Assembly: GCA_030530315.1 (NCBI GenBank)
Contig: JAUMVG010000020.1
Location: forward strand, 1 to 50,742
From: Clostridia bacterium
Lineage (GTDB): Bacteria; Bacillota; Clostridia; Christensenellales; Aristaeellaceae
Length of the DNA: 50,742 nucleotides
Direction: 5' to 3'
Of this stretch, positions 4,217-23,833 are shown piece by piece (position 1 is the stretch's first letter; each line of letters begins with the position of its first letter). Position numbers and translations under genes: made by a program. The notes below the pieces were generated by a model. That model made no database searches and was not told the origin of the DNA. It was given only the letters and a program-made list of their open reading frames with translations.

Positions 4217-4762
4217 TCAATACTGGTTGTAGGACTTCGGCGCGCCGCCGCTGGAGGACTTCTTGCCGCTGCCGCCACCGGCTGAGAAGCCGATGTTCAG
4301 CAGGGTGCCGATGCCGCTGAGCACCGTGCCGCCGACGAACAGCAGGAAGCCCAGGCCCACGTGCATGAAGGGCGCGAGGGCCGTGGCCGCGGTCTGGAAG
4401 TCGCCGGCGTTGATGCCGGTGTTCACAAAGTTGGAGATCAGCGAATTGGCAGTGACAATGTAGCCGATGGCCTCACCGTTCAGTGGGTTGCGATAGGTCA
4501 CCAGGTACCACACGATCACCACCAGGCCCAGGACGGTCACGACCAGCTGGATCGGCCTGCTGTCGATCAGGCCGCTGACCAGCATCAGCACGCCCACTAT
4601 GGGCACGCCGTAGAGCACGTTGTTCAGGTAGCGCGCGCAGGTCGCCCAGCCGATGGGGAACCCCACCAGGCCGAGGATGCGGATGCTCAGGTAGCTGAAG
4701 ATCATCGAGACCAGGCAGAGCACGCCGCCCACCAGAACCACAGGATTCAACTTCGTCTTCAT
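4217..4762 (-). CDS. Small four-helix membrane protein, last gene of the tubulin/vWA operon
   Basis: The 181-aa protein has about four hydrophobic segments and a short Gly/Ser/Lys-rich tail ending in a Tyr residue. Start chosen at ATG 4762 because GAGAGGG lies at the right distance; an in-frame upstream start at 4801 lacks a good ribosome site. No catalytic motifs are visible and I do not recognise a family. It lies 91 bp after the 860-aa vWA-like gene and just before the terminator, so it is likely co-expressed with the tubulin/GTPase proteins and could be a small integral-membrane partner. That role is inferred only from position. Confidence 0.7.
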   Translation of the reverse strand: MKTKLNPVVLVGGVLCLVSMIFSYLSIRILGLVGFPIGWATCARYLNNVLYGVPIVGVLMLVSGLIDSRPIQLVVTVLGLVVIVWYLVTYRNPLNGEAIGYIVTANSLISNFVNTGINAGDFQTAATALAPFMHVGLGFLLFVGGTVLSGIGTLLNIGFSAGGGSGKKSSSGGAPKSYNQY

Positions 4763-4853
4763 GATATTACCCTCTCTCTCTTGACCGCGCGTCACGCGCA
4801 CGGGTATGCCATGATCATCCCCCGCCCGTCGATGGCGCCGGGCAGGCGGTGTA

Positions 4854-7436
4854 TCAGCGCTTGTAGACCAGCTCGATCCCGGTCTCCTTGATGGTGTAGC
4901 TGGCCGGGCTGCCCTCTTCGACGACCTGCTTCTCGGGACCGCGCAGCGCGTGGGCCTTGTTGACCACCAGCACGCCGTCCTTCGCGGGCTTGAACACGAG
5001 CTTCTCCGCCAGCTCGCCGGAGGTCAGGACGCTCATGGGCGGCAGGCCGCTCTGGCCGATCAGCGTGCCGAAGGCCACGGCCTTCTTGCCCCACTCCGCC
5101 AGGTCGATGGGCTTGCTGTTGTAGGTGCCGTCCTTCGTGGTCACGTTCACCCGCAGCATGCCGCTGAACCTCGGCGCGGCGCTCTTGCGGATCAGCAGCA
5201 CCAATGCCAGAATCAGCGCCACGATACCCGCGCCGATGCCGGCGAGCCCGCCCGTGCCCACCTTGTCCGTGAGCCGCTCCAGAGCGGTGGGCTCCGGCGT
5301 GGGCGTCGGGGTGGGCGTGGGCGTGGCCGTCGGCTCCGGAGACGGCGTGACCGGCGCCACGACCTCGAAGTTCACGGTGGCGGAGGGCTCCGCCTGCGCG
5401 TCAAGTTCCTCGGTATCCGCGATCACCCAGGCGTTCAGCGCATAGCTGCCCACCGCGGATTGCACATTGTAGTGCCAGCCGTCGATATTGCCCTCGGCGG
5501 GCACAGGCTCGCCGCCGTTCTCGGACACGTACACGGCGATGTGGTCCAGCCAGCTGTCGTCCACGCCCGCGGCGGTGAGCTCGCGCACCGTGGTGTTGCT
5601 CAGGCTGAACTCCACGTCGATGGGGTCGCCCTCGGTATACTGTGCCTCCGCGCCGGAGGCCTCCAGCTCGGCGCCGGCAATGATGGCCGGCACGCTGGTC
5701 AGCGTCACCTTCAGCGTTCCCTCGGCGGTCAGCCCCGCCTTGTTCGTCGCGGTCAGCGTCACTTCCACGGCGTGCTCGACGCCCTCGAAGCCGCCCTCCA
5801 GCGTCAGGCCCTTCTCGCTGGTATTGGCCAGGCCGTCGTCCGACAGCGCGACCTCCACCTTTTCGATGCCCTCGCCGTTGGGATCCTCGAACAGCGCGAA
5901 CCGGTCCCCGAGGACCTCATAGGTCCTCGGGCCGTCCACGGTGTCCTTCGCCGCGTAATCGGTCTGCTCCGCCGTGAACGCCGGCGCGCCCAGCACGCGG
6001 AAGCTCTGGCTCTCGGTCAGGTTGACGTCGTAGTCCGTCTTGGAGGCCGTCGCGGTCACCGTGCAGTCAGCCGCCTCGGCGAGCTTCGCGGCGGGAATCA
6101 CGCTGCCCTCCAGCGCCTCGTCGTTCAGCGCGAACGCCACCGACACCCGGTCGGTCTCCACTCCCCCGGCCAGCACCCGGGCGGTGAGCGGAACGTCCTC
6201 GCCGGCATCCGCCACCACGTCCTCGATGGGGTCCAGCTCCAGGCGCACCTCAAGCCTGCCGTTGGACAGCGCCTCGACGCTGTCGGCCGCCTCCGGCACG
6301 CTGTTGCTCAGCAGGTAACCGCCGAAGGCCGCCTTGAAGGGCTCCGCGACGGGTACCTCGGTCCCGGCTTCTTCGACTTCGGGTTCTTCGGCTTCGGAGG
6401 CCTCCGCGCCGTTATCACCCTCGTTATCCGCGAGGGGCGCCGCCTCGTCGACGGCTTCATCCCCGGCAGGCTCCTGCCCGGAAACCTCCGCAGCAGCGTC
6501 GTCGGTCACAGCCGCGGCGCTGGCCGCCTCGGTCTCCTCCGTCCTGCCTTCATCCGGCCGCAGGGCGGGCTCTCCCGGCATATCGCCGTCAACCGCCGAC
6601 CGCTCGATATCCTCGCCTTCCGCCGCCCGGGTCACCGCCTCGGGGTCGGGGTACAGGAACAGCGGGCGCTCCAGCAGCGCCGCCGCGTCCAGCATGTCGT
6701 CCCGGCGCGTCAGCTGGCGACTGTCATAGGAAGCCTCCCCCAGCTTCTCCAGCACCAGGTTCGCCAGGTTCATGGCCTTGGCCGTGGGCGTGTCGCCGGC
6801 CAGGGTGTGATAATCCTCTTCGGCATAGAGACCATTGGTCAGCTGGCCGACGATCTTTTGGTCCTTTTTGACGGCGTTCTCACTGTCGTCAAGGCCGACG
6901 AACAGCATCTCAAGCGCCTCGCTGCGGGTCTTGTCCCGGTTTTCCATGCGGGCAAAGGTGCTGTCCTGGTCGCCGTTCACGCCGTCCAGCAGCAGCACCA
7001 CCAGCCGGGGTTCCCCCTCCTGGCCAGCGATCTGGTCCACCCGTTCCCGCAGGTAGGTGGTTTCCTTGTTGCCCGTGCCCACGGGCATGCCCTCCAGCGC
7101 CGACACCGCCTGCTCCAGGCTGTCCGCCGCCGCGGGATCCGCCGTGGCGGGCGCGTCCGGCTCCTGGGGCACCGTCCCGACGAAGGACAGCTTCACGTCC
7201 GTGTCCGCAAGGGCGTTTGCGATCAGCGCCACGGAAAGCGTCAGCCCGGGGCGGTTGGCCTCGGTGAGCACCTTGTTGGGCTTTTCGTTGGGTATCAGCA
7301 GCACCACTTCCCGGAAGGAAGCGGCCTGCGCCGCAGCATCGCTCTGAACCGCGTCCACCGCGGGCTCCGCCACCGCGCCCGCGCACAGCGCGAGCGCCAC
7401 CAGCAGGGCCAGCAACAACCGATTGAATGCCTTCAA
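4854..7436 (-). CDS. Exported vWA-like protein with one membrane span and cytoplasmic C-terminal domain
   Basis: The 860-aa protein starts at TTG 7436, which has AAAGGAGG upstream; no ATG fits better. It has a signal peptide (about 1-20), a domain resembling von Willebrand A (about 30-230; LVVLLLDG near 145 matches the fourth strand), an acidic Ala/Glu-rich linker (about 270-370), beta-rich Ig-like regions (about 370-700), a Pro/Thr/Glu wall-spanning linker, one membrane helix (about 730-750) and a 110-residue basic cytoplasmic domain. The first vWA strand lacks the DxSxS metal site; LLIPNEKPN is found instead. It is 40 bp from the 1633-aa gene and mirrors the layout of the 1036-aa vWA protein at the other end of the operon, which suggests they work as a pair across the membrane. 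Confidence 0.75.
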   Translation of the reverse strand: MKAFNRLLLALLVALALCAGAVAEPAVDAVQSDAAAQAASFREVVLLIPNEKPNKVLTEANRPGLTLSVALIANALADTDVKLSFVGTVPQEPDAPATADPAAADSLEQAVSALEGMPVGTGNKETTYLRERVDQIAGQEGEPRLVVLLLDGVNGDQDSTFARMENRDKTRSEALEMLFVGLDDSENAVKKDQKIVGQLTNGLYAEEDYHTLAGDTPTAKAMNLANLVLEKLGEASYDSRQLTRRDDMLDAAALLERPLFLYPDPEAVTRAAEGEDIERSAVDGDMPGEPALRPDEGRTEETEAASAAAVTDDAAAEVSGQEPAGDEAVDEAAPLADNEGDNGAEASEAEEPEVEEAGTEVPVAEPFKAAFGGYLLSNSVPEAADSVEALSNGRLEVRLELDPIEDVVADAGEDVPLTARVLAGGVETDRVSVAFALNDEALEGSVIPAAKLAEAADCTVTATASKTDYDVNLTESQSFRVLGAPAFTAEQTDYAAKDTVDGPRTYEVLGDRFALFEDPNGEGIEKVEVALSDDGLANTSEKGLTLEGGFEGVEHAVEVTLTATNKAGLTAEGTLKVTLTSVPAIIAGAELEASGAEAQYTEGDPIDVEFSLSNTTVRELTAAGVDDSWLDHIAVYVSENGGEPVPAEGNIDGWHYNVQSAVGSYALNAWVIADTEELDAQAEPSATVNFEVVAPVTPSPEPTATPTPTPTPTPEPTALERLTDKVGTGGLAGIGAGIVALILALVLLIRKSAAPRFSGMLRVNVTTKDGTYNSKPIDLAEWGKKAVAFGTLIGQSGLPPMSVLTSGELAEKLVFKPAKDGVLVVNKAHALRGPEKQVVEEGSPASYTIKETGIELVYKR

Positions 7437-7476
7437 AGCGTCGTCCTCCTTTAAACTTTCATCGCGCAAGCATCTG

Positions 7477-10400
7477 TCAACGCCTCAGGAAGCCAAACAG
7501 GCCGCCCTTGTGTCCCCCCGTATACAGGGTGGATTTTTGGAGGATCGCCTTGAGCGCCGCGTTCTTTTGTCTCTTTTGCAGGTCGCTGAATCCGCTGTCC
7601 TTGGCGCAGAAATCCGCCAGAGACATCTGGGAAACCGCTTCGTCGTCGCCGTAGCCGGCGAGGGCGTCGTAGGTGAACACCACGATGGTGGAGATGTCCG
7701 TGTCGTGGCCGTCCTTCCAGATGGAGCCGTCGTCTCCCAGCTTCATGGCCAGGAGCAGATAGCGGTTCCACACGTCGTTGTAATCCCTGGCCTTCGCCGC
7801 GCACAGCAGCAGCAGCACGTCGATTTCCGAGCGGATCTCGCTGTGCGCCAGGCTGATCTGGTAGACCCGGCCGCAGAATTCCCTCAGGTTGCCCATGTCC
7901 CGGCGATCCCGGTGCAGGCTGCGGAGCACCTCCTCCGCCTTGCGGCGGTCCAGCGTCCCGCGCCCCAGCACCGCCGTGGCGTACTCGCCGCACCACGCGG
8001 CCGTGCTGACGGACAGGGGCTTGGAATCGTCGGCCTTCACCCGCTCCAGCAGCGCCTTCAGCTGGGCAAAGCCCTCGCAGGCCGCCCTGGACTGGCCGTC
8101 GTAGGCCTGGCAGCACTCATGGAACGCCTCCAGGCTCTTGTCCTGGATCAGCCTGTCCACGTGGGGTTCCAGTATCTCCGCGTACAGCCCGAACCGCTCG
8201 TCGCCCAGCAGCGCGGCGACCCGCGTCAGGCCGCATGCGACGGGCAGCTTTTCACCCGAGATGCGCAAATCGTCTATGCGCCTGTCGAAATCCCGGGCCA
8301 CCAGCTCGGTCAGGCGGCGCTGGCCGTCGGCGGTGGACGCCGCGCGGGCCAGGCTCTCGCGATCGATCCAGGCCATCGCGCTTCCGCGCTCGGTCATCTC
8401 ATTCAGCGTGGCGGCGTCCTGGATCAGCCCCAGGAAGCCGTCCAGCTCCAGGGCGTCCCGCATTGCCGCCACCCGGCTGTACTGGGCATCGATGTGAACC
8501 GGGCCCTTGCCCATGCGAGCGCGCAGCTCGTCGCGCATCTTGACGGAGAGGGCCTCGATGCCGTTCAGCAGCGGCATGGCCACCGCGTCGAAGTCCTCGC
8601 GGCCCTTCCAGAGGCCCGCCATCCATTCGTAGGTCTTCTCGGTCGCGCCGGAGAAGTCGTTCCTTCCGAGATAGGTCTTCAGCCCCTCGAGCAGGCTGTC
8701 CTTCAGCACGCCATCGACCTTGATTCCGATCCCCTTCACACATTCCGCCAGCGCGTTCAGCGTCTCCGGCGGCTGCTTTTCAGCAAAGGAGGTCCATTTC
8801 GCCAGCGCCTCAAGCAGCGCCTGCCGTGCCGGCTCGCCGGTGTTTTTGGCGTAGCTGCCCAGCGCGTCGACGCGCACCGGGCCCTTCGCCTTCTTCAGCG
8901 CCTCGGCGATCAGCGCGAGGCCCTTGTCGCCGGGCAGTCCCACCGCGTCGAAGGTCCTCGCCGCCTTGGGCAGCGCCTCGCCGTCGATGTCGTTCTCCTT
9001 GATGTATTTCTGAACTGTGCGCTCCAACAGCGCCTTCGTCTCATCGTCCGGATCGGGGCAATAGCGTTTGAAGCTGTTCAGATCCCCGTCGGCGAAGGCC
9101 GATTCAGCCAACTCCCCGGCCGCCTTTTCGTCGAGCTCCGGCAGCCGCTTCTCCAACTGCTTGTAGAGCGTCCTCAGATCGTCCAGCCGACAATGATCAT
9201 CATTCAGGCTCTCGCGGATCACGCGGCCCAGCCCGGCCTGGTCGGCCTTCAGGATCCCCTGCATGGCCGGATTCCCTGCCATCTCCCGCAGGGACGCGCG
9301 GGTCTCCGGCCTGATGGCCTGGGCGGACTTCGCCAGCGCGCTGAAGATATCCGTCACCGCGGGGGCGTTGTCGCCGTTGATCTCGTCCAGCCGCTCCTTC
9401 AGGCAGCGGACAAACCGGTCGAACGCCTCGCCGTCCTTGCACTTGGAGGCGTCCTCCAACAGGGCGATGTAGGCGTTTTTATAGTCCGTGCCGCCCAGTA
9501 GGCGGTGCAGCCGTTCGCCATATTCCTCATCCGAATAGACTTGGGCAACGGCCTTCTCCCGGTCGAGCAGGCGGCCCTCCAGGTCGTCCGCGCCCTGGAC
9601 CTTCATAAGCTCGTTCAGCAGCTCATAGCCGACCATGCCCGTGGACGTTCCGCACAGCGCTCCCGCCACATCGTCGGCCAATTTATCGCTCCCCTGACGC
9701 CGGAGATAGGCATAGTGCTCAACCCAGCGTTTCGCGCCGGCCGCGTTGACAAGGCCGGAGTTCTTCAGGGAATTATCGTATTCCGTTGTGACCAGCCTGA
9801 CCCGCATTTCGTCGTCCGCGCCGCTGTCCGTGGCCACGTCATAGGCGTAGACCGCCTCGCCTTCAGAGCGCAGGCGATACTGCCTGCAGAGCATTCCCTC
9901 GATGGTCTCGAGAACCTCCGCCGACGCGGCGGCATCGTTTGCCCGCAACGCCCTGTAGTAGCCGATCCAGTCGCGGAACTTGTCCACCGTCAGGACGGTA
10001 TCCCCCGACCCGCTCGCCCGGGACAAATCCCTCAGCAGCCGCCAATACTGCGCCTGCTGCGCAATGCGTTTGGCATCCGCGTCATCCAGCAGCTTGATCC
10101 GGGTCAGCATGGCGTAGATCCCATCGGCGAAGGGCTTCCCCGCTCCTTCGGCGTTCTGCTGGCGTCCGATCCACCAGCTGTAATCCTCGGCGGAGACGGA
10201 CTGGCGGGTGTTCACGTCCTCCAGCATGCCGCGCACCAGGGCGGCTTCCAGTTCGCCGAGCAGGCGGGCGGTTCCCGCCGGCACGCCAAGCTGGCGGGCG
10301 GAGGCGGTCTCCACGTACTGCTTCAGGTTCTCCTTCGGCGCGCGACCAACGATCATGGCGATGATGCCGCCGGCGCACTCCTCGCTGATCGACTCATTCT

Positions 10401-12378
10401 CCAGGCGGCGCACCCAGACGTCGAAGTGATCGGCGTCCAACTGCTGGGGGCTTGCGGCCAGCTGCTGCGCCTCGGAGGCGACCAGCCGGTTCCACAGCTC
10501 CGGCAGTTCCTGCTGCGCCAGCAGATCCGCTGCCGCGATCCCGGTGCCCTCGAAGGCGAACTGACCGCACAGCAGCTCCCGCGCGGGTTGCGCCGCCTCC
10601 TCCAGGCGATCGCCGTAGTTCCGCCTCGTATCGGTGTAGAACGCCAGCACCTGCCGGTATTCCTGCTCGCTGAGCCGGCCGGGCTTGCGGGCGTACAGGT
10701 CCTGTATGATCCCCCGGACGATGCGGATCGCCACGCCGTCCAGCCCGTGAACCTCGGCAATGCTCAGCGGCGACGGCGCCTCGGGGTCGTCGAAGCGAAG
10801 CTGCCTGGACAGCTCCCGCTCCAGGCGGAGACACAGCGCGTCCTCGCCGCCCCGGCTGAGGATGTCGTAGCGCTTGCACCAGTTTTCAAAATCCGCCGGC
10901 GAAAGTCCGCCGGTGCGCTCCAGCATCTGCAGCTCGCCCTCCACCAGCCTCAGGGACAGGGGATCCAGCTCCAGCTCGGCGCGCCCGTTCTTTTCATTCC
11001 AGAAATCGATGGCCGAGCCCTCGTAGTCCGGCACGCGGATCTGGCGGCCCAGCTGCCCCATCAGGCGGTCGGCCACGGCTTCGGCCCGCTCGCTGCCGGT
11101 GTTCTCCCGCAGCGCCCTGTAGGCCGTCGCGAGGATGTCGTACTCCGCCAGGCGCAGCTCCGGCATCCGCTCAACCATTCCGGCCAGCTCGTCAAAGGCG
11201 TCGACCAGCGCCAGGCACGCCTCGGCGCGGCTGACGCGGTGCATCTCCAGCAGCACGCACACGTTGTCCAGGGACTTGGCGGCGTACTGGATCGCCTTGT
11301 AGCGCTCGGCAACGCCGGCCTGGGCGAAGAAATCGATGTACAGCTCGGACATCGTGCACCAGCGAAGCAGCTCGAAGTCCGCCAGCACGTCCACGGCGCC
11401 AAAGCGGCGCCGGATCGCCTCGTAGAAGCGGGGATAGCGGCCCTCGCACAGATAGCCGATCAGCCGGTTCTCCCACGCGGCGTTGGGATTGGACGCGCCG
11501 AGGTTCGTCTGGGGCGTCCTGCGCTTGTCCTCCTGCCAGCCGCGGAAGTCGAACATGTTCGCCGCGTCCCGGCTTGTGAAGCGCCCGCCGTCCAGATAGA
11601 TGCGGCAGGCGGCGTCCGGCCAGTTTTCATCCCGGTTGTTCGGGGAGCAGCCGATGGCGACGCTCAGCATGGACATCACCTGCGGCGGCAAGGCCGGGGC
11701 CAGCTCCTCCCGGAAGAAGCGAACGCACTCCGAAAGGGCCTTGGTCTGGTCGGGCAGGTCGGCGGCATTGACCGCCAGGACCTCCACGTGGGGCGCAGTC
11801 CTGGGCGCGGTGGCGTTCCAGGCCACGCGCTTTTCCATCATCCAGCGCATGCGCATCCAGCAGACCTGCCACACGCGCATCACCAGCTCCGCCAGCTCCT
11901 GACTGAGGGGCTTGAGTTCGGCGGGCTCGTCCGGCAGGTACAGGGACATCTCCCCGCCCCGCAGCGTCTCGCCGTTTTCGGCGATGTTCACATACTGGTC
12001 CGCGCGAATGAAATAGGACTCGTTGTCCAGCACCTGGCCGATGGCGCGGCGCAACCGATCGCGATGCGCCTCGTCCCCCTCCACCAGGGTGCCGTCCAGC
12101 GCCATGGCGTGGGTGTAGTTGATGTCGCGCTTGTGGAAGATATAGTGGCTGTTTTCCACCGTCCAACGGTCAAAGGCATAGCTTTCAATTTCATAGACCG
12201 GCAGATAGACGACGCCGTTCGGCCCGGCGACTCCATACACGTTGTCGCGCCGCTTGAAGTTCGGGCTGACCAGGAACAGGTCCTGGAAATACTGGGGCTC
12301 GGAGCGGCGCTCGAAGCCATAGTTTTCCCGCAGCGAGGAGCCCCGCAGCAGCGATGAATACGGAATGTTGATTTGCAC
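7477..12378 (-). CDS. Giant (1633 aa) mostly helical cytoplasmic protein of the tubulin/GTPase operon
   Basis: I do not recognise a named family. The N-terminal part (about 1-270) looks alpha/beta, with short hydrophobic strands (VVYLPVYEIES, VEVLAVNAADL). The remaining 1350 residues are almost entirely amphipathic helices rich in Leu, Ala, Arg and Glu, as in a helical solenoid or scaffold. No signal peptide, membrane span or NTPase loop is seen. It starts at GTG 12378 with AAGGGTGAA upstream and lies 41 bp after the GTPase gene. By position it may be the partner of that GTPase, like the large GTPase-associated proteins of predicted bacterial GTPase systems; this is context inference. The C-terminus is a Gly-rich stretch ending LFGFLRR, similar in style to the end of the GTPase. 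Confidence 0.75.
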   Translation of the reverse strand: MQINIPYSSLLRGSSLRENYGFERRSEPQYFQDLFLVSPNFKRRDNVYGVAGPNGVVYLPVYEIESYAFDRWTVENSHYIFHKRDINYTHAMALDGTLVEGDEAHRDRLRRAIGQVLDNESYFIRADQYVNIAENGETLRGGEMSLYLPDEPAELKPLSQELAELVMRVWQVCWMRMRWMMEKRVAWNATAPRTAPHVEVLAVNAADLPDQTKALSECVRFFREELAPALPPQVMSMLSVAIGCSPNNRDENWPDAACRIYLDGGRFTSRDAANMFDFRGWQEDKRRTPQTNLGASNPNAAWENRLIGYLCEGRYPRFYEAIRRRFGAVDVLADFELLRWCTMSELYIDFFAQAGVAERYKAIQYAAKSLDNVCVLLEMHRVSRAEACLALVDAFDELAGMVERMPELRLAEYDILATAYRALRENTGSERAEAVADRLMGQLGRQIRVPDYEGSAIDFWNEKNGRAELELDPLSLRLVEGELQMLERTGGLSPADFENWCKRYDILSRGGEDALCLRLERELSRQLRFDDPEAPSPLSIAEVHGLDGVAIRIVRGIIQDLYARKPGRLSEQEYRQVLAFYTDTRRNYGDRLEEAAQPARELLCGQFAFEGTGIAAADLLAQQELPELWNRLVASEAQQLAASPQQLDADHFDVWVRRLENESISEECAGGIIAMIVGRAPKENLKQYVETASARQLGVPAGTARLLGELEAALVRGMLEDVNTRQSVSAEDYSWWIGRQQNAEGAGKPFADGIYAMLTRIKLLDDADAKRIAQQAQYWRLLRDLSRASGSGDTVLTVDKFRDWIGYYRALRANDAAASAEVLETIEGMLCRQYRLRSEGEAVYAYDVATDSGADDEMRVRLVTTEYDNSLKNSGLVNAAGAKRWVEHYAYLRRQGSDKLADDVAGALCGTSTGMVGYELLNELMKVQGADDLEGRLLDREKAVAQVYSDEEYGERLHRLLGGTDYKNAYIALLEDASKCKDGEAFDRFVRCLKERLDEINGDNAPAVTDIFSALAKSAQAIRPETRASLREMAGNPAMQGILKADQAGLGRVIRESLNDDHCRLDDLRTLYKQLEKRLPELDEKAAGELAESAFADGDLNSFKRYCPDPDDETKALLERTVQKYIKENDIDGEALPKAARTFDAVGLPGDKGLALIAEALKKAKGPVRVDALGSYAKNTGEPARQALLEALAKWTSFAEKQPPETLNALAECVKGIGIKVDGVLKDSLLEGLKTYLGRNDFSGATEKTYEWMAGLWKGREDFDAVAMPLLNGIEALSVKMRDELRARMGKGPVHIDAQYSRVAAMRDALELDGFLGLIQDAATLNEMTERGSAMAWIDRESLARAASTADGQRRLTELVARDFDRRIDDLRISGEKLPVACGLTRVAALLGDERFGLYAEILEPHVDRLIQDKSLEAFHECCQAYDGQSRAACEGFAQLKALLERVKADDSKPLSVSTAAWCGEYATAVLGRGTLDRRKAEEVLRSLHRDRRDMGNLREFCGRVYQISLAHSEIRSEIDVLLLLCAAKARDYNDVWNRYLLLAMKLGDDGSIWKDGHDTDISTIVVFTYDALAGYGDDEAVSQMSLADFCAKDSGFSDLQKRQKNAALKAILQKSTLYTGGHKGGLFGFLRR

Positions 12379-12419
12379 AGCACTTCACCCTTTACCTACG
12401 ATATGAAGCCTCCGAAAAC

Positions 12420-14069: not shown

Positions 14070-14114
14070 ACTCTTTCACTCCATCCTGTTTGTTGCGCGT
14101 CGCGGGGCGGGCTC

Positions 14115-14273
14115 ATACTAAGACCTGATTAAAATGAGACTGAATCAGCGAGGGCTTTTTTGCGTTGGCAAGGCGAAGTCCCGCAGGCTTGCTGGCGGCA
14201 AGTCAAGGGGCTTCAACACCGTCAACGCGGATAAGAACCGCTGAAATGTCTTGTTTTAGTCAGGGATTAGTAT
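14115..14273 (+). repeat. 159-bp palindromic MITE-like element, copy 1
   Basis: The element runs from ATACTAA to TTAGTAT and matches the copy at 40053-40211 at 153 of 159 positions. Its ends are imperfect inverted repeats of about 36 bp (shared blocks ATACTAA, CCTGA, TAAAA, AGAC, CAGCG). Inside are nested arms: GCGTTGGC with GTCAACGC, GAAGTCCC with GGGGCTTC, and CTTGC with GCAAG. The whole element could fold into one long hairpin. It carries no coding region. Here it fills most of the gap between the GTPase gene and the 832-aa gene, and its last base is the last base of that gene's stop codon. Confidence 0.85.
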
Positions 14274-16771: not shown

Positions 16772-16807
16772 GGTCTTTCCCACCTTCGCGTCTATTTGGC
16801 AAATCCG

Positions 16808-16841: not shown

Positions 16842-16858
16842 ATTCATAATAAGTATTG

Positions 16859-19800
16859 TTACCAGGTGCGGATGAACCGGCCGAGGGGCTGGCCCAGCAT
16901 CTCCAGCAGGCTGTTGCAGGTGTTGTAGGCCTGGCGGTCCAGCGCGTGGTCGGCGTAAGCCATCATCACGTTCTGCTTCAGGCCGTCCAGCTTGGTGCGC
17001 CATTCGGCGGCTCTGGCCTTGATCTCATCGGTCTGCGCGTCGCTGTCCTCCTTCTCGGACACCTCGCGCTGGATCCTCTCGGCCTTCTCCACCGCCAGCG
17101 CGATGGCGCCGGGCTCGTTCTTGCCGCCCGCGCTGTACCAGAGCGCAAACTGCAGCAGGATCGGGAACTCGTTGAAGCAGCCGTACATGCGCTCCAGCTC
17201 CACGTGCCGGTCCTCGGTGTTGTACACCTCAGCGCTGGGACCCTCGATCACCGTGGTGGCGATCTTCACGCGCATGACCTTCAGCAGGTCGAACATCAGC
17301 ATGCGGGCCACGTCGGCGCAGTCCGCGGTCAGGACGCTCTCGTCGGCCTGCTCGGGGATCTCGGCGATGCGGGCCTTGGCCTTGTCCACCAGGGCCTCCG
17401 CCTCGGCCAGGCGCTCCTTCACCAGGCTGCCCAGCTTCACGTGCTCGGCCATCTCCGCCACGACGTCCAGGCGGCGGCTCAGCGCCTCGCGGATCGCGCG
17501 GCCGTAGGCGCTGGACCACGCGTCCTTGATCTCCTCGGTCATGGTCGGGTTGAAGCTCGGCTTCAGCTCCATCAGCTTGTTGGAGACGCCCAGCTTGTTG
17601 CCCCAGTCGGTGGCGGCGTCATACAGGTGGCTGAAGGTCAGCGGGTCGCGGGTGCGGTTGTTGTCCAGCGCCACGATGGCGTCGCGATAGTCCTCCGCCA
17701 GCTTCTGCGCCTGCTGCAGCTGGGCCTTGTTGGCCTGGTTGGGCTCCAGCTTCAGAAGGTCGTCCAGCGCGGCCCGGTTGAAGGGGATGGCGTCCAGCGC
17801 GTTCCGGATGGTGGTCTCGGAGGGCGTCACGCCGTCGATCTTCTTGAACACGCACTTGTAGGCGTTCACGGCGGGCAGCTCGTTGTAGTTGAACTTGTAG
17901 TCCAGCTTCAGCACGCCCTGCTTCTCGGCTTCCTTCAGCTGCTCGGCGGCCTCGCCGGTCTCGCGGACCTCGCGCTCGATGAAGGGATCGGGGATGCGGG
18001 CGGTGTCGCCCCAGGGCTGCTTCATCTGGTCGAGCAGGCCCGCGTCGTTGATGGCGTCGGGATTCTCGTTCATGTACAGGTGATAGGCCTTGTGGGAGCG
18101 CTTGCTCTCGGTATAGACCCTGCGCAGCACGTCGAGGAACCCATAGAAGTACATCGGCAGGCCGCCCTTGTCGTTGACCCAGAAGATGCGGTCGCTGCTC
18201 TGGGTGTGCTTGATGATGGCCAGAAGGTTGTTGTTCTTGCAGTAGGCCTGGATGCCCTGCTCGATGTCCGTGGCGCCCTGGGGCAGCGTGATCATGCTGA
18301 CGTGCACCGCGATGTTGTTGGGCAGGTCCATGGACTCGGGGGACGGATAGAACATGACCTCCGCGCCGGTGCGCAGCTTGGCGCACAGCTGGTTGGTGAC
18401 GTAGTTCTGCAGCGCGGCGCCGTCGCCCACGTGCTGATAGGTCTGGATCTTCTGGGTCAGGGACAGGCCGCCCACGGCGACGAACATGTTCTCGCGCATG
18501 GCGTCCACGGTCTGGTTCACCAGCGCGGGCAGCTCGCTGGGCGCGAGCTTGGCGTCCATCATCCGCTCGGTCACGGCGATGGCGCTGTTGTAGATGCCCT
18601 GCACCAGGGTGTCCCGCTTGTCCTGATCCGCAAACTTCTGGGTCAGGTCATTGGCCATGGCGCTGGTGTCGAACAGCGTGGCGGTGGTGTTGGCGCGGGC
18701 CTTGCGCAGCTCCTCCTCGTAGGCGTTCTTCTGGGTGCGGATGGCGGTCACGATGTCGCCCAGCACCGCGGTGTACAGGGCCAGCCGCTTCTGGAAGTCG
18801 TTCAGCGCCTCCTTCAGCGCGGCGTAGTAGGCGTCGGCCTGGGTCGCGTTGTAGAGGGTCTGGACCTTGGCCATGTAGTCCTCGAAGTTCTGGCGGTTGC
18901 GCAGCAGGCCGCCCAGCACGCCCGGGTGCAGGAACTTCTCGAAGCTGCTCCTGCAGTGGTCCTTGTAGCTCTGCATATCGCTGGCGGCGGTCGCCTTCTT
19001 GCCGTCCAGCACCGCGCCGTAGTCCGCGACCTTCTTGCCCAGGCAGTTCTCGCCCTCGCTGAGCATCGCGTACAGGTACTCGGGGCCGCGCTTGATGTCC
19101 TGGCCGATCTGGCGGGCCTGGGTCAGGAACACGTTCCACACGTCCTCGGCCAGCTGGATCTCCTCGTTGCCCTTGCTGTGGCGCAGCGCGTCCGCGAAAT
19201 TGGTATAGGCGGTGCCGTGGGGCGCGGAGCTGCCGTCCTGGCTGCGCAGGGTGTCCACGTCGAAGCCGTCAAAGCTGGGAATGACGTGGCGCTGGTTGAA
19301 GCCCTGGCGCACGACCGCCGAGGCGGTGCCGGCCTGCATGGTGTCCAGGGACATCACGTTCTTCTTGAACTCCTCGATGTCCATGCCGTCCATGATGGCC
19401 TTGTGGGTATCGAAGCGGGTGATCGCCTCGTCGTAGATCATCGACCACTCCTGCAGCTCCATCAGCCGATCCTCGCCGGCGTTGCTGTAGGCGCCGAGGG
19501 AGTGATAGCGGGTGGGCATCGGATAGGGGTGATGCATCATGCTGATGATGGCGGACTGGTTGGAGTGGGCGCTCTGGAAGCCGTATGCGTTGGCGTCGCT
19601 GGTGGCGCCGCCGTCGCCCTTCCTCTCCTCATCCACGACCTCGAAGGTCTCGTTGCCGGCGGCGTCGCTGCTCTCGTAGCAGTGCACCAGGTACTCGGCG
19701 ACGGCGTCGGTGTTGTGCTCGTAGGCGTTCTCGATGTTCACGCCGTGGTCGTTCTGAGAGCACAGCAGGTACACGTCGTCAAAGGGCGCGCCGGTCCAGG

Positions 19801-20566
19801 TCAGCGTGTCGGTGTTGGTGTACTGCTGCCGCAGGGTGACGCCGGTGGTCTCCGCGTCCATCCAGAAGTCCAGCTCCTTCAGGAAGGCGTAGCTGTTGCT
19901 GCTGTACAGGCGGGTATTGGCCTCTGCGCCGCCGCCGTTGTGGGCGATGGTCACGTCGGGCATCATCAGGTAGGCCTCGATGTTGATCCTGTAGCCGCCC
20001 CGGCGGGCGATGTCCCGCAGGATGTAGGCGATGTCCAGGATGGTGCCGGAGCCCGTGCCGCCGGAGATGCCGGCCATCAGCTTGACGGAGATGCGGTTGT
20101 TCCTGGCCGCGTTCGCCGCGTTCACGGCGCCCAGGGAGTTCAGCTTGCCGGTCAGCGCCATGCGAATGCTGTTGAACTTGTCAAACAGCATCAGGCGGGA
20201 GACCTGGCGATAGCAGCCCGCGCCGTCGCGGGTGACATCGATGCCCTCCAGGCGGGGGTCCAGCCACTCGGTGACGTAGTTCTTCCTGCCGAGGGCGCCC
20301 TTGATCGTTTCGAAGTCGCCGCCGATATCCACGAACTCGCCGTTTTCCAGCTTCATGCCGTAGAGGCGCTTGTCGCCGATGCCGCTCTCGGTATCGATCT
20401 CCAGGTATTCCGTGCGCGGCGGCCGGTTGGCCTCGGTGCCATCCGGGAAGCGCTGGCCTTCAAAGCGCTTGTTGAATTCAGACTTGGTCCGCATCAGCAT
20501 GCTGAATCCGGTTCCGCCCAGTCCCAGGATCAGTACCGGCGCGTCGATCTTCTTAACCTTAGGCAT
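16859..20566 (-). CDS. Tubulin-like GTPase (Tubulin_2-type), 1235 aa
   Basis: The N-terminus has the glycine loop of the FtsZ/tubulin fold (LILGLGGTG, 12-20) and the signature GISGGTGSG at 166-174, which contacts GTP phosphates. After the N-terminal GTPase region (about 1-420) the protein extends another 800 residues, largely helical (about 500-700 and 850-1200), far longer than FtsZ (about 400 aa). No membrane segment is seen. Such long tubulin-superfamily proteins are known from diverse bacteria and archaea, often beside vWA and GTPase genes, and are predicted to act in membrane remodelling; no assay defines the role here. The start ATG 20566 follows AAGGGGG. It is the second gene of the operon, 156 bp after the vWA gene. 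Confidence 0.88.
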   Translation of the reverse strand: MPKVKKIDAPVLILGLGGTGFSMLMRTKSEFNKRFEGQRFPDGTEANRPPRTEYLEIDTESGIGDKRLYGMKLENGEFVDIGGDFETIKGALGRKNYVTEWLDPRLEGIDVTRDGAGCYRQVSRLMLFDKFNSIRMALTGKLNSLGAVNAANAARNNRISVKLMAGISGGTGSGTILDIAYILRDIARRGGYRINIEAYLMMPDVTIAHNGGGAEANTRLYSSNSYAFLKELDFWMDAETTGVTLRQQYTNTDTLTWTGAPFDDVYLLCSQNDHGVNIENAYEHNTDAVAEYLVHCYESSDAAGNETFEVVDEERKGDGGATSDANAYGFQSAHSNQSAIISMMHHPYPMPTRYHSLGAYSNAGEDRLMELQEWSMIYDEAITRFDTHKAIMDGMDIEEFKKNVMSLDTMQAGTASAVVRQGFNQRHVIPSFDGFDVDTLRSQDGSSAPHGTAYTNFADALRHSKGNEEIQLAEDVWNVFLTQARQIGQDIKRGPEYLYAMLSEGENCLGKKVADYGAVLDGKKATAASDMQSYKDHCRSSFEKFLHPGVLGGLLRNRQNFEDYMAKVQTLYNATQADAYYAALKEALNDFQKRLALYTAVLGDIVTAIRTQKNAYEEELRKARANTTATLFDTSAMANDLTQKFADQDKRDTLVQGIYNSAIAVTERMMDAKLAPSELPALVNQTVDAMRENMFVAVGGLSLTQKIQTYQHVGDGAALQNYVTNQLCAKLRTGAEVMFYPSPESMDLPNNIAVHVSMITLPQGATDIEQGIQAYCKNNNLLAIIKHTQSSDRIFWVNDKGGLPMYFYGFLDVLRRVYTESKRSHKAYHLYMNENPDAINDAGLLDQMKQPWGDTARIPDPFIEREVRETGEAAEQLKEAEKQGVLKLDYKFNYNELPAVNAYKCVFKKIDGVTPSETTIRNALDAIPFNRAALDDLLKLEPNQANKAQLQQAQKLAEDYRDAIVALDNNRTRDPLTFSHLYDAATDWGNKLGVSNKLMELKPSFNPTMTEEIKDAWSSAYGRAIREALSRRLDVVAEMAEHVKLGSLVKERLAEAEALVDKAKARIAEIPEQADESVLTADCADVARMLMFDLLKVMRVKIATTVIEGPSAEVYNTEDRHVELERMYGCFNEFPILLQFALWYSAGGKNEPGAIALAVEKAERIQREVSEKEDSDAQTDEIKARAAEWRTKLDGLKQNVMMAYADHALDRQAYNTCNSLLEMLGQPLGRFIRTW

Positions 20567-20619
20567 TGATGTATCCCCCTTACATGATCTTTAGGTGAAT
20601 GGGTCGCTATGCTCATCAA

Positions 20620-20645
20620 CTGAAGCCCGGCCCTCCGGGTTTCAG
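20620..20645 (-). other. Intercistronic stem-loop before the tubulin gene
   Basis: CTGAAGCCCGG and CCGGGTTTCAG pair around a 4-nt loop. A run of five A follows on the plus strand, so the minus-strand RNA has U before the stem rather than after it. It is the second of two hairpins in the 156-bp gap and could tune expression of the tubulin-like gene. Confidence 0.55.
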
Positions 20646-20683
20646 AAAAATGCGTATCGAACATCCCCGGGGCGGGGCAAACC

Positions 20684-20708
20684 GAAGGCCGCGACCGATG
20701 CGGCCTTC
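20684..20708 (-). terminator. Terminator-like stem-loop after the 1036-aa vWA gene
   Basis: GAAGGCCGC and GCGGCCTTC form a perfect 9-bp stem with a 7-nt loop, 14 nt past the stop codon. Only GGTTTG follows, so it is probably a partial terminator that lets some transcription pass into the tubulin-like gene. Confidence 0.5.
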
Positions 20709-20722
20709 AATTCGTATTGTCG

Positions 20723-23700
20723 TCAGTCCCTCTTGAACACGACGGTGTTCTCGTTGCCGGCGGTGTCGCGGAAGGCCACGGTGATGCGGCCGTTGCGGCA
20801 CCACTTGGCCTTGCGGCTGCGGGTGATGACCGTGCCGTCCACCTTCACGCTCGAGCCGTTGGGCAGCGCCGCGTTCTTCTTCAACTCCACCACCAGGCGG
20901 TTGCCGGTGGTCGGCCACAGCTGGATCTTGCTGAACACCTGGGCGCCGCTGCCGTCGTCCATGATGGTGAAGTGATCCGCCAGCACCTTCAGCGTGCAGG
21001 GCTTGCGGCGGGTGCGGCCGAACCTGCGGCTCTCCTTGCCCTCGTCGGAGAGCACGGCGAAGTCGTTCTGGGTCACGCGATACTCGTCGTTGTGCCTCGG
21101 CCACGGGCGGTGCACCACGTACTTGTTGATCAGCACCGCGGCGATGACAGCCAGGATCAGCAGGATCACCGCGTAGGTGATGATGCACATCAGCCGGTCG
21201 CGGGAGGAGGTGATGTTGTAGTCGATGGCGTAGGACACGGACTCGTCGTCCTCGTCGGTGGCGGTCACCGTCACGTGGGACCTGCCGAAGCGGGCGGCCG
21301 TCACGTTCAGGGTGTCGCCCTCCAGCGCGCCGCTGTCCACGTCGGCGTTGGTCTCCACCACGGGGCCCTCCTTGGCGATCAGGCCGAAGGTGCGCAGGAT
21401 GGCGCGGGCGGGGGTGAAGAGGTCCTTCTCCTCCTCCTGGTTCTCGGCGGAGGCGGTGAAGCTCAGGCTGTCGAAAGCGCCGTCGGCGTCGGTGAACCAG
21501 TCGTTCAGCGCGTGGCTCAGCTTGCCCAGCTCCGGGTTGTCCTTGTCCACGGTGAACACCACGCCGGCTTCGCCGGACTCGCCGCCATTTCCGGCCAGCA
21601 GGCCCTCCAGGTCCTCAACGACCACGGGGGCCACGTTGACCACCTCGAAGGTGTTGCTGCCCAGCGGTTTGCTCTCGCCGCCGTTGATGCTGTAGGTGGA
21701 ATCCACCTGCACCTTGCCGGTGTTGCGCTTGGCGCTGACGGTGTAGCCCAGGCCGAACTCGTCGTTTACGACCTCGGCGTCCTTGGGCTTCTCCACCGTC
21801 ACATGCTCCACGGCCAGCACGCCGTCCAGCTTGTCGCGCAGCTCCAGCGCGGCCAGCTCGGAGTACGGGAAGTCGGCGCTCGGCGGCACCAGGTCGTAGG
21901 CCACCTGCACCGTGGCGCTGCCGCCCTTGCCCAGCTGGCCCGGCTCAAGCCCGGTTCCCAGTTCGGCGATCTCAGGCTGGACGGGATCTGCGCTGATGGT
22001 CAGGCAGTCGTTCAGCAGGTCGCCGACGGAGATCACGTTGGCGGTGAAGCGCACGGATTCGGACTTGTTGCCCGCGCCGTCCTGGGCGTAGACGTCCACA
22101 TAGCCGTCCTTCAGGTTGTCGTCGCTCACCCGATGGACGACCAACTTCTCGTTGTCAACGATCTCGCCCTCCAGTCCGCTCCGGGAGGCGATCACATAGG
22201 TCAGCGGGTCGTCGTCTTCGTCCTTGAAGCAGCCGGACAGCGGCTTGGATTCCAGTTCGACGGGGGCATTTTCATCAAAGATGTCGTTGATGCGGATCGT
22301 GCCCAGGAACTGGGGCTCCGTCTCCGTCGCCACGGGCTTGTCGCCGAACACCACGAACACGTTGTTCTCGTTGTTCTCCGTCTCCCGGAACAGGTGGTCG
22401 CCGCTGGCGCTCACCCCATAGTGGAAGGTCTGCTGGTCGGCGGCGTTCTTGTTTACGAAGCTGGCGGTGTTCAGGTCGATGTCGCAGACGAAACGACTGT
22501 TGTCGTAATCGGCGGTCATCGGCGTCTCCAGCACGGGGTTGTTGTTGGCGTCGTAGACGGTCAGCACCGCCTCGATGCCAGTGCCGTCCGCCTGGCGGCC
22601 GCCGTACAGGCTGATGTCGCTGCTGGGGGCGCCCGTTGCGTCCACGAACCAGGACTCGATGGTCACGTGCTCGTTCTTCCTGAACGCGTTGTCATCCGCG
22701 CCGGTCAGGCCCGCCGCCAACTCGATCTGATAGTTGTACAGCAGGTCGATGGTCATCTGCTCGTCTGCGGAGACGTCGGCGGCCCGGCGCGCGCTCACCT
22801 TCCAGGTGCCCGGGTCCGGCTCGATGATCTTCAGGCTGACGAAGTCGTAGCGCTGATAGGCTTGTCCCTTCAGGCCGGAGCTGCCAGCCGATAGCGTGTG
22901 GTCGTTGGTGTACATGATCAGGTTCGGCCCGTCGCCGATCTGCTGACCGTTGTTGTCCTGCACGGATACGCCGCCCTCGATCTTGTTCCTGTCCACCACC
23001 ACGTTGACCTCGGTGATGGCCTTGTGGGGAATGCGGATGTCGAACACGATGTCGTCGCCGTCCCCGGCCTGGGCGGTGACCGTCTCCTGCTCGGTGCCGA
23101 TCAGCTCGGCAAAGACGCCGCTGAAGCGGTCCTTCAGCTCGGAGGGCTGCACGCCGGACCAGTAGGTCTCAGGGGAGGTGGCGATGCTGCGCAGCAGGTT
23201 CTGGCCATTGGGATCGTTGCCGAACTGCATGCAGTAGATGCGGCCGCCGAAGGCTTCGATCTGCCGCGCGCAGTCCACCGCCATCTGCTCATTCTCGGCG
23301 GAGGCCGGCTTGGAGATGCCGTCACCCAGCACCAGCACCAGCTTCTGGTTGCCGGTGTCGCTGCGGCTCATCAGGTCCAGCGCCTGCTGCATGCCCAGAG
23401 CGTAGTTGGTAAGACCCGTGTGGAGGTTCGCGCCGCTGGCATAGTCCACATCGTTCGCGTACAGCGAATCGCACAGCGCCCTGCGGCGGACCGGGTCGGA
23501 GACATCGATCCAGGTCTTCCACAGGCTGCCGTGGCTGGCGTTATAATCATCGATGAAGCGCTGCTCGTCCGTGAACGGCACGATGGCGGCCTTGGAGAAC
23601 TTCGCGTCGCACATGTTGATCAGCATGGTCGCCGCGTCCAGGCACATCGTCTCCGGGTCGGCAGGGTTGTTATTTCCCAAGCCCGGGAAGGTCGAGAAGG

Positions 23701-23833
23701 AAAAGTCGATCACGACCACGACGTCCAGCCCGGGGTTCTTGACCTCGGCCAGCGCGCCGGTCAGGCCGCCGAGCATGCCCAGCGCGAGCATCGCGGCCAT
23801 CATCAGAGCAAGCAGTTTCCTCATTTGCTTCAC
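20723..23833 (-). CDS. Exported vWA-domain protein with one membrane span; first gene of the tubulin operon
   Basis: The protein is about 1036 aa. It has a signal peptide (about 1-30) followed by a vWA domain (about 35-245) with an intact metal site: DFSFS at 43-47, a downstream Thr near 130 and VLGDG near 168. Long beta-rich Ig- or cadherin-like regions follow (about 250-870), then one membrane helix (about 880-905) and a basic cytoplasmic domain of about 130 residues rich in beta strands, possibly FHA-like. GTG 23833 is chosen because GGAG lies 8 bp upstream; GTG 23842 and ATG 23824 are alternatives. The domain order places a metal-dependent adhesion module outside and a small domain inside, near the cytoplasmic tubulin-like and GTPase proteins. 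Partner and ligand are unknown. Confidence 0.85.
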   Translation of the reverse strand: MKQMRKLLALMMAAMLALGMLGGLTGALAEVKNPGLDVVVVIDFSFSTFPGLGNNNPADPETMCLDAATMLINMCDAKFSKAAIVPFTDEQRFIDDYNASHGSLWKTWIDVSDPVRRRALCDSLYANDVDYASGANLHTGLTNYALGMQQALDLMSRSDTGNQKLVLVLGDGISKPASAENEQMAVDCARQIEAFGGRIYCMQFGNDPNGQNLLRSIATSPETYWSGVQPSELKDRFSGVFAELIGTEQETVTAQAGDGDDIVFDIRIPHKAITEVNVVVDRNKIEGGVSVQDNNGQQIGDGPNLIMYTNDHTLSAGSSGLKGQAYQRYDFVSLKIIEPDPGTWKVSARRAADVSADEQMTIDLLYNYQIELAAGLTGADDNAFRKNEHVTIESWFVDATGAPSSDISLYGGRQADGTGIEAVLTVYDANNNPVLETPMTADYDNSRFVCDIDLNTASFVNKNAADQQTFHYGVSASGDHLFRETENNENNVFVVFGDKPVATETEPQFLGTIRINDIFDENAPVELESKPLSGCFKDEDDDPLTYVIASRSGLEGEIVDNEKLVVHRVSDDNLKDGYVDVYAQDGAGNKSESVRFTANVISVGDLLNDCLTISADPVQPEIAELGTGLEPGQLGKGGSATVQVAYDLVPPSADFPYSELAALELRDKLDGVLAVEHVTVEKPKDAEVVNDEFGLGYTVSAKRNTGKVQVDSTYSINGGESKPLGSNTFEVVNVAPVVVEDLEGLLAGNGGESGEAGVVFTVDKDNPELGKLSHALNDWFTDADGAFDSLSFTASAENQEEEKDLFTPARAILRTFGLIAKEGPVVETNADVDSGALEGDTLNVTAARFGRSHVTVTATDEDDESVSYAIDYNITSSRDRLMCIITYAVILLILAVIAAVLINKYVVHRPWPRHNDEYRVTQNDFAVLSDEGKESRRFGRTRRKPCTLKVLADHFTIMDDGSGAQVFSKIQLWPTTGNRLVVELKKNAALPNGSSVKVDGTVITRSRKAKWCRNGRITVAFRDTAGNENTVVFKRD

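What the first reader, a model, noticed from the sequence alone, without database searches (positions are those of the whole stretch)
4217..23833. Tubulin-like / GTPase / double-vWA operon in a monoderm genome
Seven minus-strand genes between one good promoter (23905-23933) and one terminator (4134-4176) encode a vWA membrane protein, a 1235-aa tubulin-like GTPase with GISGGTGSG, an unknown 832-aa protein, a zinc-ribbon GTPase with complete GTP motifs, a 1633-aa helical protein, a second vWA-like membrane protein and a small membrane protein. Comparative genomics (Makarova and Koonin 2010, from memory) predicted a membrane-remodelling system of tubulin-like protein + vWA + distinct GTPase + OmpA protein. 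Here OmpA is absent, and two single-span vWA proteins reaching outward could replace it. Inference: a cytoplasmic tubulin/GTPase machine coupled to cell-surface modules.
Basis: partly seen in the sequence, partly recalled or inferred. Interest (0 to 1): 0.92.

Follow-up and report, generated by a model that had tools for sequence, protein, structure and literature searches.

The report
Membrane-anchored bacterial tubulin–GTPase operon
A rumen bacterium carries a seven-gene operon that pairs a tubulin-like GTPase and a probable dead tubulin copy with a switch GTPase, a fast-changing partner protein and two outward-facing membrane proteins; it is a new variant of a system so far predicted from genome comparison, and its function is untested here.

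Summary
Seven minus-strand genes (4217-23842) lie between an 11/12 promoter match and a strong terminator. The 1235-aa protein belongs to Tubulin_2 (144.6 bits); the GTPase is a borderline DO-GTPase2; the first vWA protein keeps its MIDAS motif.

The gene set recurs in other genera of the host's family. It matches, with differences, the Firmicutes tubulin theme of the DO-GTPase/GAP1-N2 systems (Kaur et al. 2020), a closer precedent than the OmpA-containing system of Makarova and Koonin 2010.

New here: (1) The 832-aa 'unknown' belongs to a family that follows the tubulin gene in 15 of 18 fetched loci and is probably a GTP-site-less tubulin paralogue; the link runs through intermediates. (2) The second vWA-like protein is a full-length MIDAS-less relative of the first. 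(3) The 1633-aa protein sits where GAP1 sits and probably is a divergent GAP1. Between two sister species its ends are 92-99% identical, residues 601-1400 only 49-74%, with raised dS, 132 aa length difference and internal repeats. (4) This subtype lacks the usual multi-span vWA protein.

Best reading: a GTP-switched, membrane-tethered tubulin assembly with a variable recognition arm, perhaps a conflict system. No structure prediction was obtained.

The parts
23905..23933 (-). promoter-like site TTGACA-17-TAAAAT
   Evidence: 11/12 consensus match; a divergent + strand site lies at 24111-24139
20723..23842 (-). P0007, vWA1: signal peptide, vWA-type N-terminus with MIDAS pattern DFSFS, long ectodomain, one C-terminal hydrophobic span (about residue 885-905, read from the sequence), cytosolic tail of about 130 aa
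   Evidence: group comparison vWA1_close/vWA1_fam P=7.6e-70
16859..20566 (-). P0006, Tubulin_2 (FtsZl1) protein, T1 GLGGTG at 15, T4 GISGGTGSG at 166, long C-terminal region
   Evidence: Pfam PF13809 144.6 bits
14273..16783 (-). P0005 (ATG at residue 5 gives 832 aa): 'M' family, probable GTP-site-less tubulin paralogue
   Evidence: P0005 group vs wider M family P=9.5e-11; M proteins of genome family f129 vs 24 tubulins P=1.7e-6, 0 of 40 column shuffles reach the score; P0005 group vs tubulins directly P=0.029-0.31
14090..14262 (-). dispersed ~150-bp repeat between P0005 and P0004; absent at this junction in G023
   Evidence: 34 matches in own genome
12420..14069 (-). P0004, DO-GTPase2-like GTPase: P-loop GYPSSGKT (183), DLPGE, TKAD; CxxC at 4 and at 157 (split zinc ribbon)
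   Evidence: Pfam PF19993 26.6 bits, 30.3; motifs
7477..12378 (-). P0003, probable divergent GAP1 (N2 type): conserved N-terminal ~500 aa, hypervariable repeat-bearing middle (about residues 600-1400), conserved C-terminal ~230 aa
4854..7469 (-). P0002, MP2: MIDAS-less full-length relative of vWA1; signal peptide, acidic and proline-rich stretches, one hydrophobic span (about residue 745, read from the sequence), cytosolic tail about 110 aa
   Evidence: MP2 group vs vWA1 family P=1.4e-15
4217..4801 (-). P0001, small membrane protein (likely start MKTKL, 180 aa), 4 hydrophobic spans in its G023 counterpart
   Evidence: sMP groups P=6.2e-6
4134..4176 (-). intrinsic terminator
   Evidence: fold z -4.3

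Best explanation
This belongs with the Firmicutes branch of the tubulin-bearing DO-GTPase/GAP1 systems, in a seven-gene form without the multi-span vWA protein. Proposed mechanism: the zinc-ribbon DO-GTPase and the GAP1-like protein form a GTP switch (inferred). The variable repeat-bearing middle of the GAP1-like protein recognises a changing ligand or invader (inferred from its divergence). When triggered, the switch controls assembly of a cytoplasmic polymer or complex made of the GTP-binding tubulin-like protein and its GTP-site-less paralogue (paralogy partly shown, assembly inferred). The assembly docks on the short cytosolic tails of two related single-pass proteins whose large ectodomains, one with and one without a metal-binding MIDAS, face the cell wall (topology read from sequence, docking inferred). 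The result would be local membrane or envelope remodelling, most likely as a defence or other conflict response.
For: Gene set and order recur. I fetched 18 of the tubulin loci found in the family (from 17 of the 21 genomes with a match among 308). The M gene follows the tubulin gene in 15 and a GTPase gene of the P0004 family follows M in the same 15 (cut by the contig end in G1230 and G1204; M in G1041 found by profile; M in G1192 and G1093 by position). The other 3: G1105 ends at the tubulin gene, G1241 just after it, G1169:C11 is a solitary broken copy. In three loci of genome family f129 the same core is seen, with a multi-span vWA and a small protein between M and GTPase; in the one scanned with Pfam (G627) the gene after the GTPase is GAP1-N2 (148.6 bits) and GAP1-M (89.7 bits), the GTPase is DO-GTPase2 (28.0), both vWA proteins pass the vWA cut-off. 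Profile comparisons (single pairs, not corrected for 190 pairs): P0003 group vs family GAP P=6.9e-16; P0005 group vs family M P=9.5e-11; P0002 group vs vWA1 family P=1.4e-15; f129 M vs 24 tubulins P=1.7e-6, score 64.5 against at most 23.2 in 40 column shuffles. N-termini of 10 GAP1 proteins (5 with a direct GAP1-N2 match) vs family GAP N-termini: collinear, P=0.01-0.018, 0 of 40 shuffles. T1 in 21 of 21 tubulins, strict T4 pattern in 17 of 21, no full T4 in any of 17 M proteins; strict MIDAS pattern in 10 of 13 vWA1 and 0 of 9 MP2. Conflict-type signs: 2 of 28 genomes of the genus have the operon; P0003 residues 601-1400 are 49-74% identical between sisters, dS 0.30-0.68, 143 gap columns in one block, against 95-99% and dS 0.11-0.26 for residues 1-500; internal repeats in that middle (84 against at most 54 in 20 shuffles; 189 against 62 in the sister) but not in the N-terminus (39 against 51).
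Against: Pfam GAP1 models do not hit P0003; GAP1 vs family GAP over full length is neither significant nor collinear (P=0.22); family GAP N-termini vs the bridging G527 protein give nothing (P=0.53, 22 of 40 shuffles as good); one unrelated control pair reached P=0.017. P0005 group vs tubulins directly P=0.029-0.31, and vs the f129 M proteins P=0.68-0.88. The G1192 and G1093 GAP, M and MP2 genes were assigned by position before they were put into the groups. No vWA1 was recognised before the tubulin gene in G1230, and only weakly in G1093 (E=3e-4). No PADLOC match, no recognised effector, no defence gene noted in the flanks, no phage match and one weak plasmid match for P0006. Nothing shows polymerisation, GTP hydrolysis or co-transcription.
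Confidence: 0.6

Rival explanations
1. A housekeeping or niche-specific membrane-remodelling/envelope machine (vesicle budding, surface display), as Makarova and Koonin proposed, with no role in defence. The tubulin complex bends or organises membrane around the vWA proteins.
For: Two single-span outward proteins, small membrane protein, no toxin-like effector, no PADLOC match; flanks look like ordinary metabolic genes (names mostly by eye); prior prediction in PMC2875224.
Against: Patchy presence (2 of 28 in the genus, 21 of 308 in the family) and the fast-changing GAP1-like middle fit an accessory, contested function better.
Confidence: 0.3
2. Two adjacent units rather than one machine: vWA1-tubulin-M and GTPase-GAP-sMP-MP2, split by the 203-bp gap with the inserted repeat.
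For: 203-bp gap holding a dispersed repeat; in the f129 loci two other genes lie between M and GTPase.
Against: G023 has 43 bp there and no insert; M and GTPase genes are neighbours in 15 of 18 fetched family loci; no terminator-like site listed in the gap on the minus strand; the repeat folds no better than shuffles (z -0.85).
Confidence: 0.08
3. P0005 is not a tubulin paralogue but an unrelated adaptor whose profile similarity to tubulin, seen only through intermediates, is spurious.
For: Direct P0005-group vs tubulin comparisons give P=0.029-0.31 among 190 pairs, and P0005 group vs f129 M P=0.68-0.88; no Pfam match over a cut-off.
Against: f129 M vs tubulins is collinear over about 700 columns and far above shuffles; f129 M vs merged M P=0.0011; P0005 group vs family M P=2e-12; merged M vs tubulins scores 27.7 against at most 20.6 in 40 shuffles. 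Kaur et al. state that Firmicutes versions have two tubulin-domain genes.
Confidence: 0.3

Closest known systems
Firmicutes tubulin theme of the GAP1-N2-type DO-GTPase systems (Kaur et al. 2020, eLife, PMC7159879; passages read)
   Same: DO-GTPase with N-terminal zinc ribbon, tubulin gene(s), vWA proteins, a GAP1 encoded after the GTPase; two tubulin-domain genes reported there, which tubulin plus M here may correspond to
   Different: No multi-span vWA protein here; the second surface protein is a MIDAS-less relative of vWA1 (which relatives such as G287 and G254 carry in addition to the multi-span vWA); the GAP1 candidate is too divergent for the Pfam models and has a hypervariable repeat-bearing middle, where Kaur et al. 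describe a polar C-terminal extension; the second tubulin-like gene lacks the GTP site
FtsZl1/Tubulin_2 membrane-remodelling system (Makarova and Koonin 2010, PMC2875224; parts 1-2 of 5 read)
   Same: N-terminal Tubulin_2 domain with intact T1/T4 and long C-terminal region; vWA and distinct GTPase neighbours
   Different: No OmpA protein and no protein kinase in the operon; active/inactive paralogue pairs not described in the parts read
Type B Tubulin_2 operons seen here (G288, G392, G362; G452 and G397 on short contigs)
   Same: Tubulin_2 protein preceded by a signal-peptide membrane protein
   Different: Followed by a 2-TM and a large multi-TM protein; no DO-GTPase or GAP1 found by our queries in the four loci long enough to tell

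Membership tests
Tubulin_2 / FtsZl1 | Pfam PF13809 above cut-off | tested here: met
   144.6 bits, cut-off 27
Tubulin_2 / FtsZl1 | GTP-binding loops T1 and T4 | tested here: met
   GLGGTG at 15, GISGGTGSG at 166
Tubulin_2 / FtsZl1 | tubulin fold and GTP-dependent assembly | not testable with these tools
DO-GTPase/GAP1-N2 system, tubulin theme | DO-GTPase with zinc ribbon and Walker B glutamate (DxxGE) | tested here: met
   DO-GTPase2 26.6 bits (cut-off 27), 30.3 in six-frame search; DLPGE, CxxC at 4 and 157. Borderline score
DO-GTPase/GAP1-N2 system, tubulin theme | GAP1 with GAP1-N2 and GAP1-M domains | tested here: inconclusive
   Pfam models do not hit P0003; collinear weak profile match of N-termini, P=0.01-0.018, 0 of 40 shuffles; full length not significant; gene position as in the confirmed locus G627
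DO-GTPase/GAP1-N2 system, tubulin theme | two tubulin-domain genes (Firmicutes) | tested here: inconclusive
   P0005 linked to tubulins mainly through intermediates
DO-GTPase/GAP1-N2 system, tubulin theme | two vWA proteins, one multi-span | tested here: not met
   no multi-span vWA in the operon; the only genome match is a vWA domain in a protein with one hydrophobic span, lipoprotein-like by eye; genome 94% complete
Makarova-Koonin system with OmpA | OmpA-domain protein (reported in several genomes only) | tested here: not met
   no such Pfam match among the seven proteins
Known anti-phage defence systems | match to PADLOC-DB 2.0.0 models | tested here: not met
   0 of 7 proteins at E up to 0.1

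The most novel reading that the evidence does not exclude
The operon builds a two-subunit tubulin polymer from one GTP-binding and one GTP-site-less subunit, tethered to a matching pair of metal-binding and metal-site-less surface receptors, and switched by a GTPase/GAP1 pair whose repeat arm is expanded and exchanged between close relatives as a recognition module: an inducible, membrane-anchored bacterial tubulin cytoskeleton used in conflict.
Probability: 0.3. Interest if true: 0.85.

Novelty: new variant of a known kind. Interest (0 to 1): 0.55.

Why it matters
The tubulin-bearing systems have been predicted twice (2010, 2020) by genome comparison, with different guessed functions; my five literature searches listed no paper that, from its title and the start of its abstract, tests one (one search listed 20 of 127 papers). 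Recognising the recurrent order, the probable dead-tubulin partner, the vWA/pseudo-vWA pair and the hypervariable GAP1-like middle turns 'an operon of unknowns' into stated pairwise predictions: which proteins should form heteromers, which should vary, which face the outside. Corynebacterium glutamicum, a control genome with Tubulin_2 over the cut-off and GAP1-N2, could serve for tests.

Tried and rejected
Rejected or unresolved: (1) OmpA replacement: not needed, two-vWA Firmicutes operons are known. (2) Mobile element: P0006 has no match among phage records and 1 weak match among plasmid records; flanks hold genus-wide genes. (3) The stretch 4-32 kb as one island: in 8 of 8 sampled congeners the block from 32.3 kb on has other left neighbours (tblastn, E up to 1e-15), but MP481 (2610-4055) lies next to the 42-46 kb genes in 6 of 15 fetched congener loci, so the order differs more widely and no clean empty site was found. 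(4) Minus-strand ORFs at 24-32 kb and a Pfam DUF6031 match there are probably shadow ORFs. My query was a wrong-frame ORF over MP481 (hence the stops it lists); its matches still located the gene (confirmed). (5) BLAST self-comparison of P0003 printed no repeats; a gapped self-alignment against shuffles did find them. (6) A faster-changing GAP middle was not clear in the more distant pairs G287/G1006 (one block at 21%, the rest 39-71%) and G1169/G1122. Raised dS is not confined to P0003: P0002 has blocks at 0.49 and 0.32, P0007 one at 0.31, P0003 501-600 0.34. (7) Solved-structure searches with tubulin, M and GAP alignments: 0, 3 chance-level and 0 matches. (8) A full-length GAP1 vs family GAP comparison was not collinear and is not counted as support.

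Limits: gene calls in fetched loci are longest-ORF picks by script, not curated; 4 of 21 family genomes (G1114, G1116, G1121, G1131, weak partial matches) and second matches in G1093 and G1105 were not fetched; hhalign values are single-pair and uncorrected. Labels Rnf, purA, nicotinamidase and FN3-like are by eye. Makarova 2010 was read in parts 1-2 of 5; Kaur 2020 and PMC9871819 as passages; other papers only as search listings.
Full report
1. Observation. A promoter-like site with 11 of 12 consensus bases precedes them and a strong hairpin followed by U residues ends them (z -4.3). The sister genome G023 (CADCHI010000016.1, 'uncultured Clostridiales bacterium isolate RUG14645') has the same seven genes in the same order, with dN/dS 0.14-0.48. 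These are real genes.

2. What the proteins are. P0006 is a Tubulin_2 protein (144.6 bits) with intact T1 and T4 loops. P0004 is a DO-GTPase2 at the edge of the curated cut-off (26.6 bits against 27; 30.3 in the six-frame search) with P-loop, DxxGE, TKxD and two CxxC pairs. P0007 has a signal peptide, a vWA-type N-terminus with the MIDAS pattern and one C-terminal span. P0001 is a small multi-span protein. P0002, P0003 and P0005 have no Pfam match over a cut-off.

3. Relatives. A profile of six tubulins found a match in 21 of 308 genomes of the family, four of them weak and partial. Tubulin_2 itself, at E up to 0.001, occurs in 7 of 297 genomes of the order sample (5 over the cut-off), 11 of 291 of the class sample (9 over) and 14 of 398 of the phylum sample (11 over). 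In the genus, 2 of 28 genomes have the operon. I fetched 18 of the family loci, from 17 of the 21 genomes. In 15 the M gene (P0005 position) follows the tubulin gene and a GTPase gene of the P0004 family follows M, as far as the contig reaches. A vWA1 gene is recognised before the tubulin gene in 14 of these 15 (weakly in G1093, with a multi-span vWA in between in G287), not in G1230. The GAP position is filled in all 13 whose contig goes on past the GTPase gene; in G1192 and G1093 that is by position. The other three loci are two contigs that end at or just after the tubulin gene and one solitary broken tubulin gene.

4. The three unknowns. (a) P0003: the gene after the DO-GTPase in G627 of f129 is a clear GAP1 (GAP1-N2 148.6 bits, GAP1-M 89.7 bits). 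P0003 belongs to the family that fills this position in the host's family (P=6.9e-16). N-termini of 10 GAP1 proteins, 5 of them with a direct GAP1-N2 match, align with that family collinearly but weakly (P=0.01-0.018, 0 of 40 column shuffles). Over full length they do not (P=0.22), one bridging protein (G527, GAP1-M 21.8 bits against a cut-off of 24) gives no link to the family N-termini (P=0.53), and one unrelated control pair reached P=0.017. So 'probable GAP1', not shown. (b) P0005: its group matches the wider M family (P=9.5e-11). The f129 M proteins match 24 tubulins over about 700 collinear columns (P=1.7e-6; score 64.5 against at most 23.2 in 40 shuffles) and match the merged M family at P=0.0011; the merged M family against tubulins scores 27.7 against at most 20.6 in 40 shuffles, P=0.067. 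In a plain HMM search of 4476 ORFs the three best non-members for the f129 M profile were tubulins, though with E 0.16-0.25. The P0005 group compared directly gives P=0.029-0.31 with tubulin groups and P=0.68-0.88 with f129 M. None of 17 M proteins has the full T4 motif. So P0005 is probably a GTP-site-less tubulin paralogue. Kaur et al. reported two tubulin-domain genes in Firmicutes, which this would explain. (c) P0002: its group is a full-length relative of the vWA1 family (P=1.4e-15), and a profile of the MP2 proteins finds P0007 at E=3.1e-8; the strict MIDAS pattern is found in 0 of 9 MP2 proteins and 10 of 13 vWA1 proteins (by eye at least one more vWA1, G1192, has it).

5. Hypervariable middle. 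Between window and G023, P0003 is 95-99% identical at residues 1-500 and 92-96% at 1401-1600, but 49-74% at 601-1400, with dS 0.30-0.68 there against 0.11-0.26 in the first 500 residues, and 143 gap columns in block 801-900. Raised dS as well as dN points to exchange with a diverged copy or repeat turnover, not selection on a few residues alone. Gapped self-alignment shows internal repeats in this part (84 against at most 54 in 20 shuffles; 189 against 62 in G023) and none in the N-terminus (39 against 51). Other blocks with raised dS are P0002 301-400 (0.49, a gapped stretch) and 601-700 (0.32), P0007 1-100 (0.31) and P0003 501-600 (0.34). The pattern was not clear in the more distant pairs G287/G1006 and G1169/G1122.

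6. Subtype. The multi-span vWA2 protein is found in G287, G254, G1006, G1169, G1224 and, cut by the contig end, G1122, and beyond the family in the three f129 loci and, by similarity to those, G579. It is missing from the loci of the window, G023, G1192, G1093 and G1041; five further loci are too short to tell (G035, G1044, G1230, G1204, G1105). The rest of the window's genome gave only a vWA domain in a lipoprotein-like protein. In the tubulin tree the window and G023 group with G1105, G1192 and G1093 (support 0.986); joining G1041/G1204 to them has no support (0.069). The tubulin pairs of G254 and of G527 are each other's closest relatives (support 1.000).

7. Mechanism. Shown: gene content, order, motifs, recurrence, divergence pattern. 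Inferred: a GTP switch (DO-GTPase plus GAP1-like), a tubulin/pseudo-tubulin assembly, docking to the tails of two related surface proteins, and recognition by the GAP1 repeat arm. I favour a conflict role because of patchy presence and the variable arm; a non-defence envelope role is the main rival. No tool result decides between them. Structure prediction could not be obtained.

8. Novelty. The kind is known by prediction. New here, as far as I saw, are the vWA2-less subtype, the paired active/inactive relatives and the hypervariable GAP1-like middle. That no functional test turned up rests on five searches of one open-access library, judged from titles and abstract beginnings of the listed papers, and may be incomplete.

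Noticed in passing
window 14090-14262 and 40044-40200: Two copies of a ~150-bp dispersed repeat with 34 matches in the genome. Six copies are split at position 63/66, with 112 bp (four) or 194 bp (two) between the halves, as if hosting an insert. The first copy sits inside the operon and is absent in the sister genome.
   Followed up: partly
window 24219-32040: The right flank reads on the + strand (an isochorismatase/nicotinamidase-like start at 24939 and a purA-like gene ending near 32.04 kb, names by eye); it is shared with G023 but not found next to the 32.3-kb block in 8 of 8 sampled congeners.
   Followed up: partly
window 27042-28328 (-): Pfam DUF6031 passes its cut-off (28 against 25 bits) on an ORF whose substitutions against the sister genome do not concentrate on the third codon position; probably a shadow ORF, so the model may describe shadows of high-GC genes.
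   Followed up: no
L029, L030, L031, L032: A different neighbourhood in four genomes: a 547-712 aa open frame that weakly matches Tubulin_2, followed by a 1069-1407 aa ORF. In the three whose start was printed (G265, G254:C3, G084) it begins with a T1-like GG(C/T/S)G loop.
   Followed up: no
L021-L024, L057, L059-L062: Type B Tubulin_2 operons: signal-peptide membrane protein, tubulin, 625-679 aa 2-TM protein, 996-1498 aa multi-TM protein (three small ORFs or more intervene before the tubulin in G392); no DO-GTPase seen.
   Followed up: partly
L127:6910-8709 (-): A 599-aa protein with LIGLGGAG near its start, directly after a Tubulin_2 gene; weak profile match to tubulins (P=0.0022), perhaps another second tubulin subunit.
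   Followed up: no
L175 (G1169:C11): A solitary 735-aa tubulin-like gene, apparently broken (a further 140-aa matching ORF in another frame), without the operon, in a genome that also has an operon on C20.
   Followed up: no
L055:349-3096 (-): A HerA-like ATPase (DUF87, 43.7 bits) lies at the end of the tubulin/GTPase gene run of G579.
   Followed up: no
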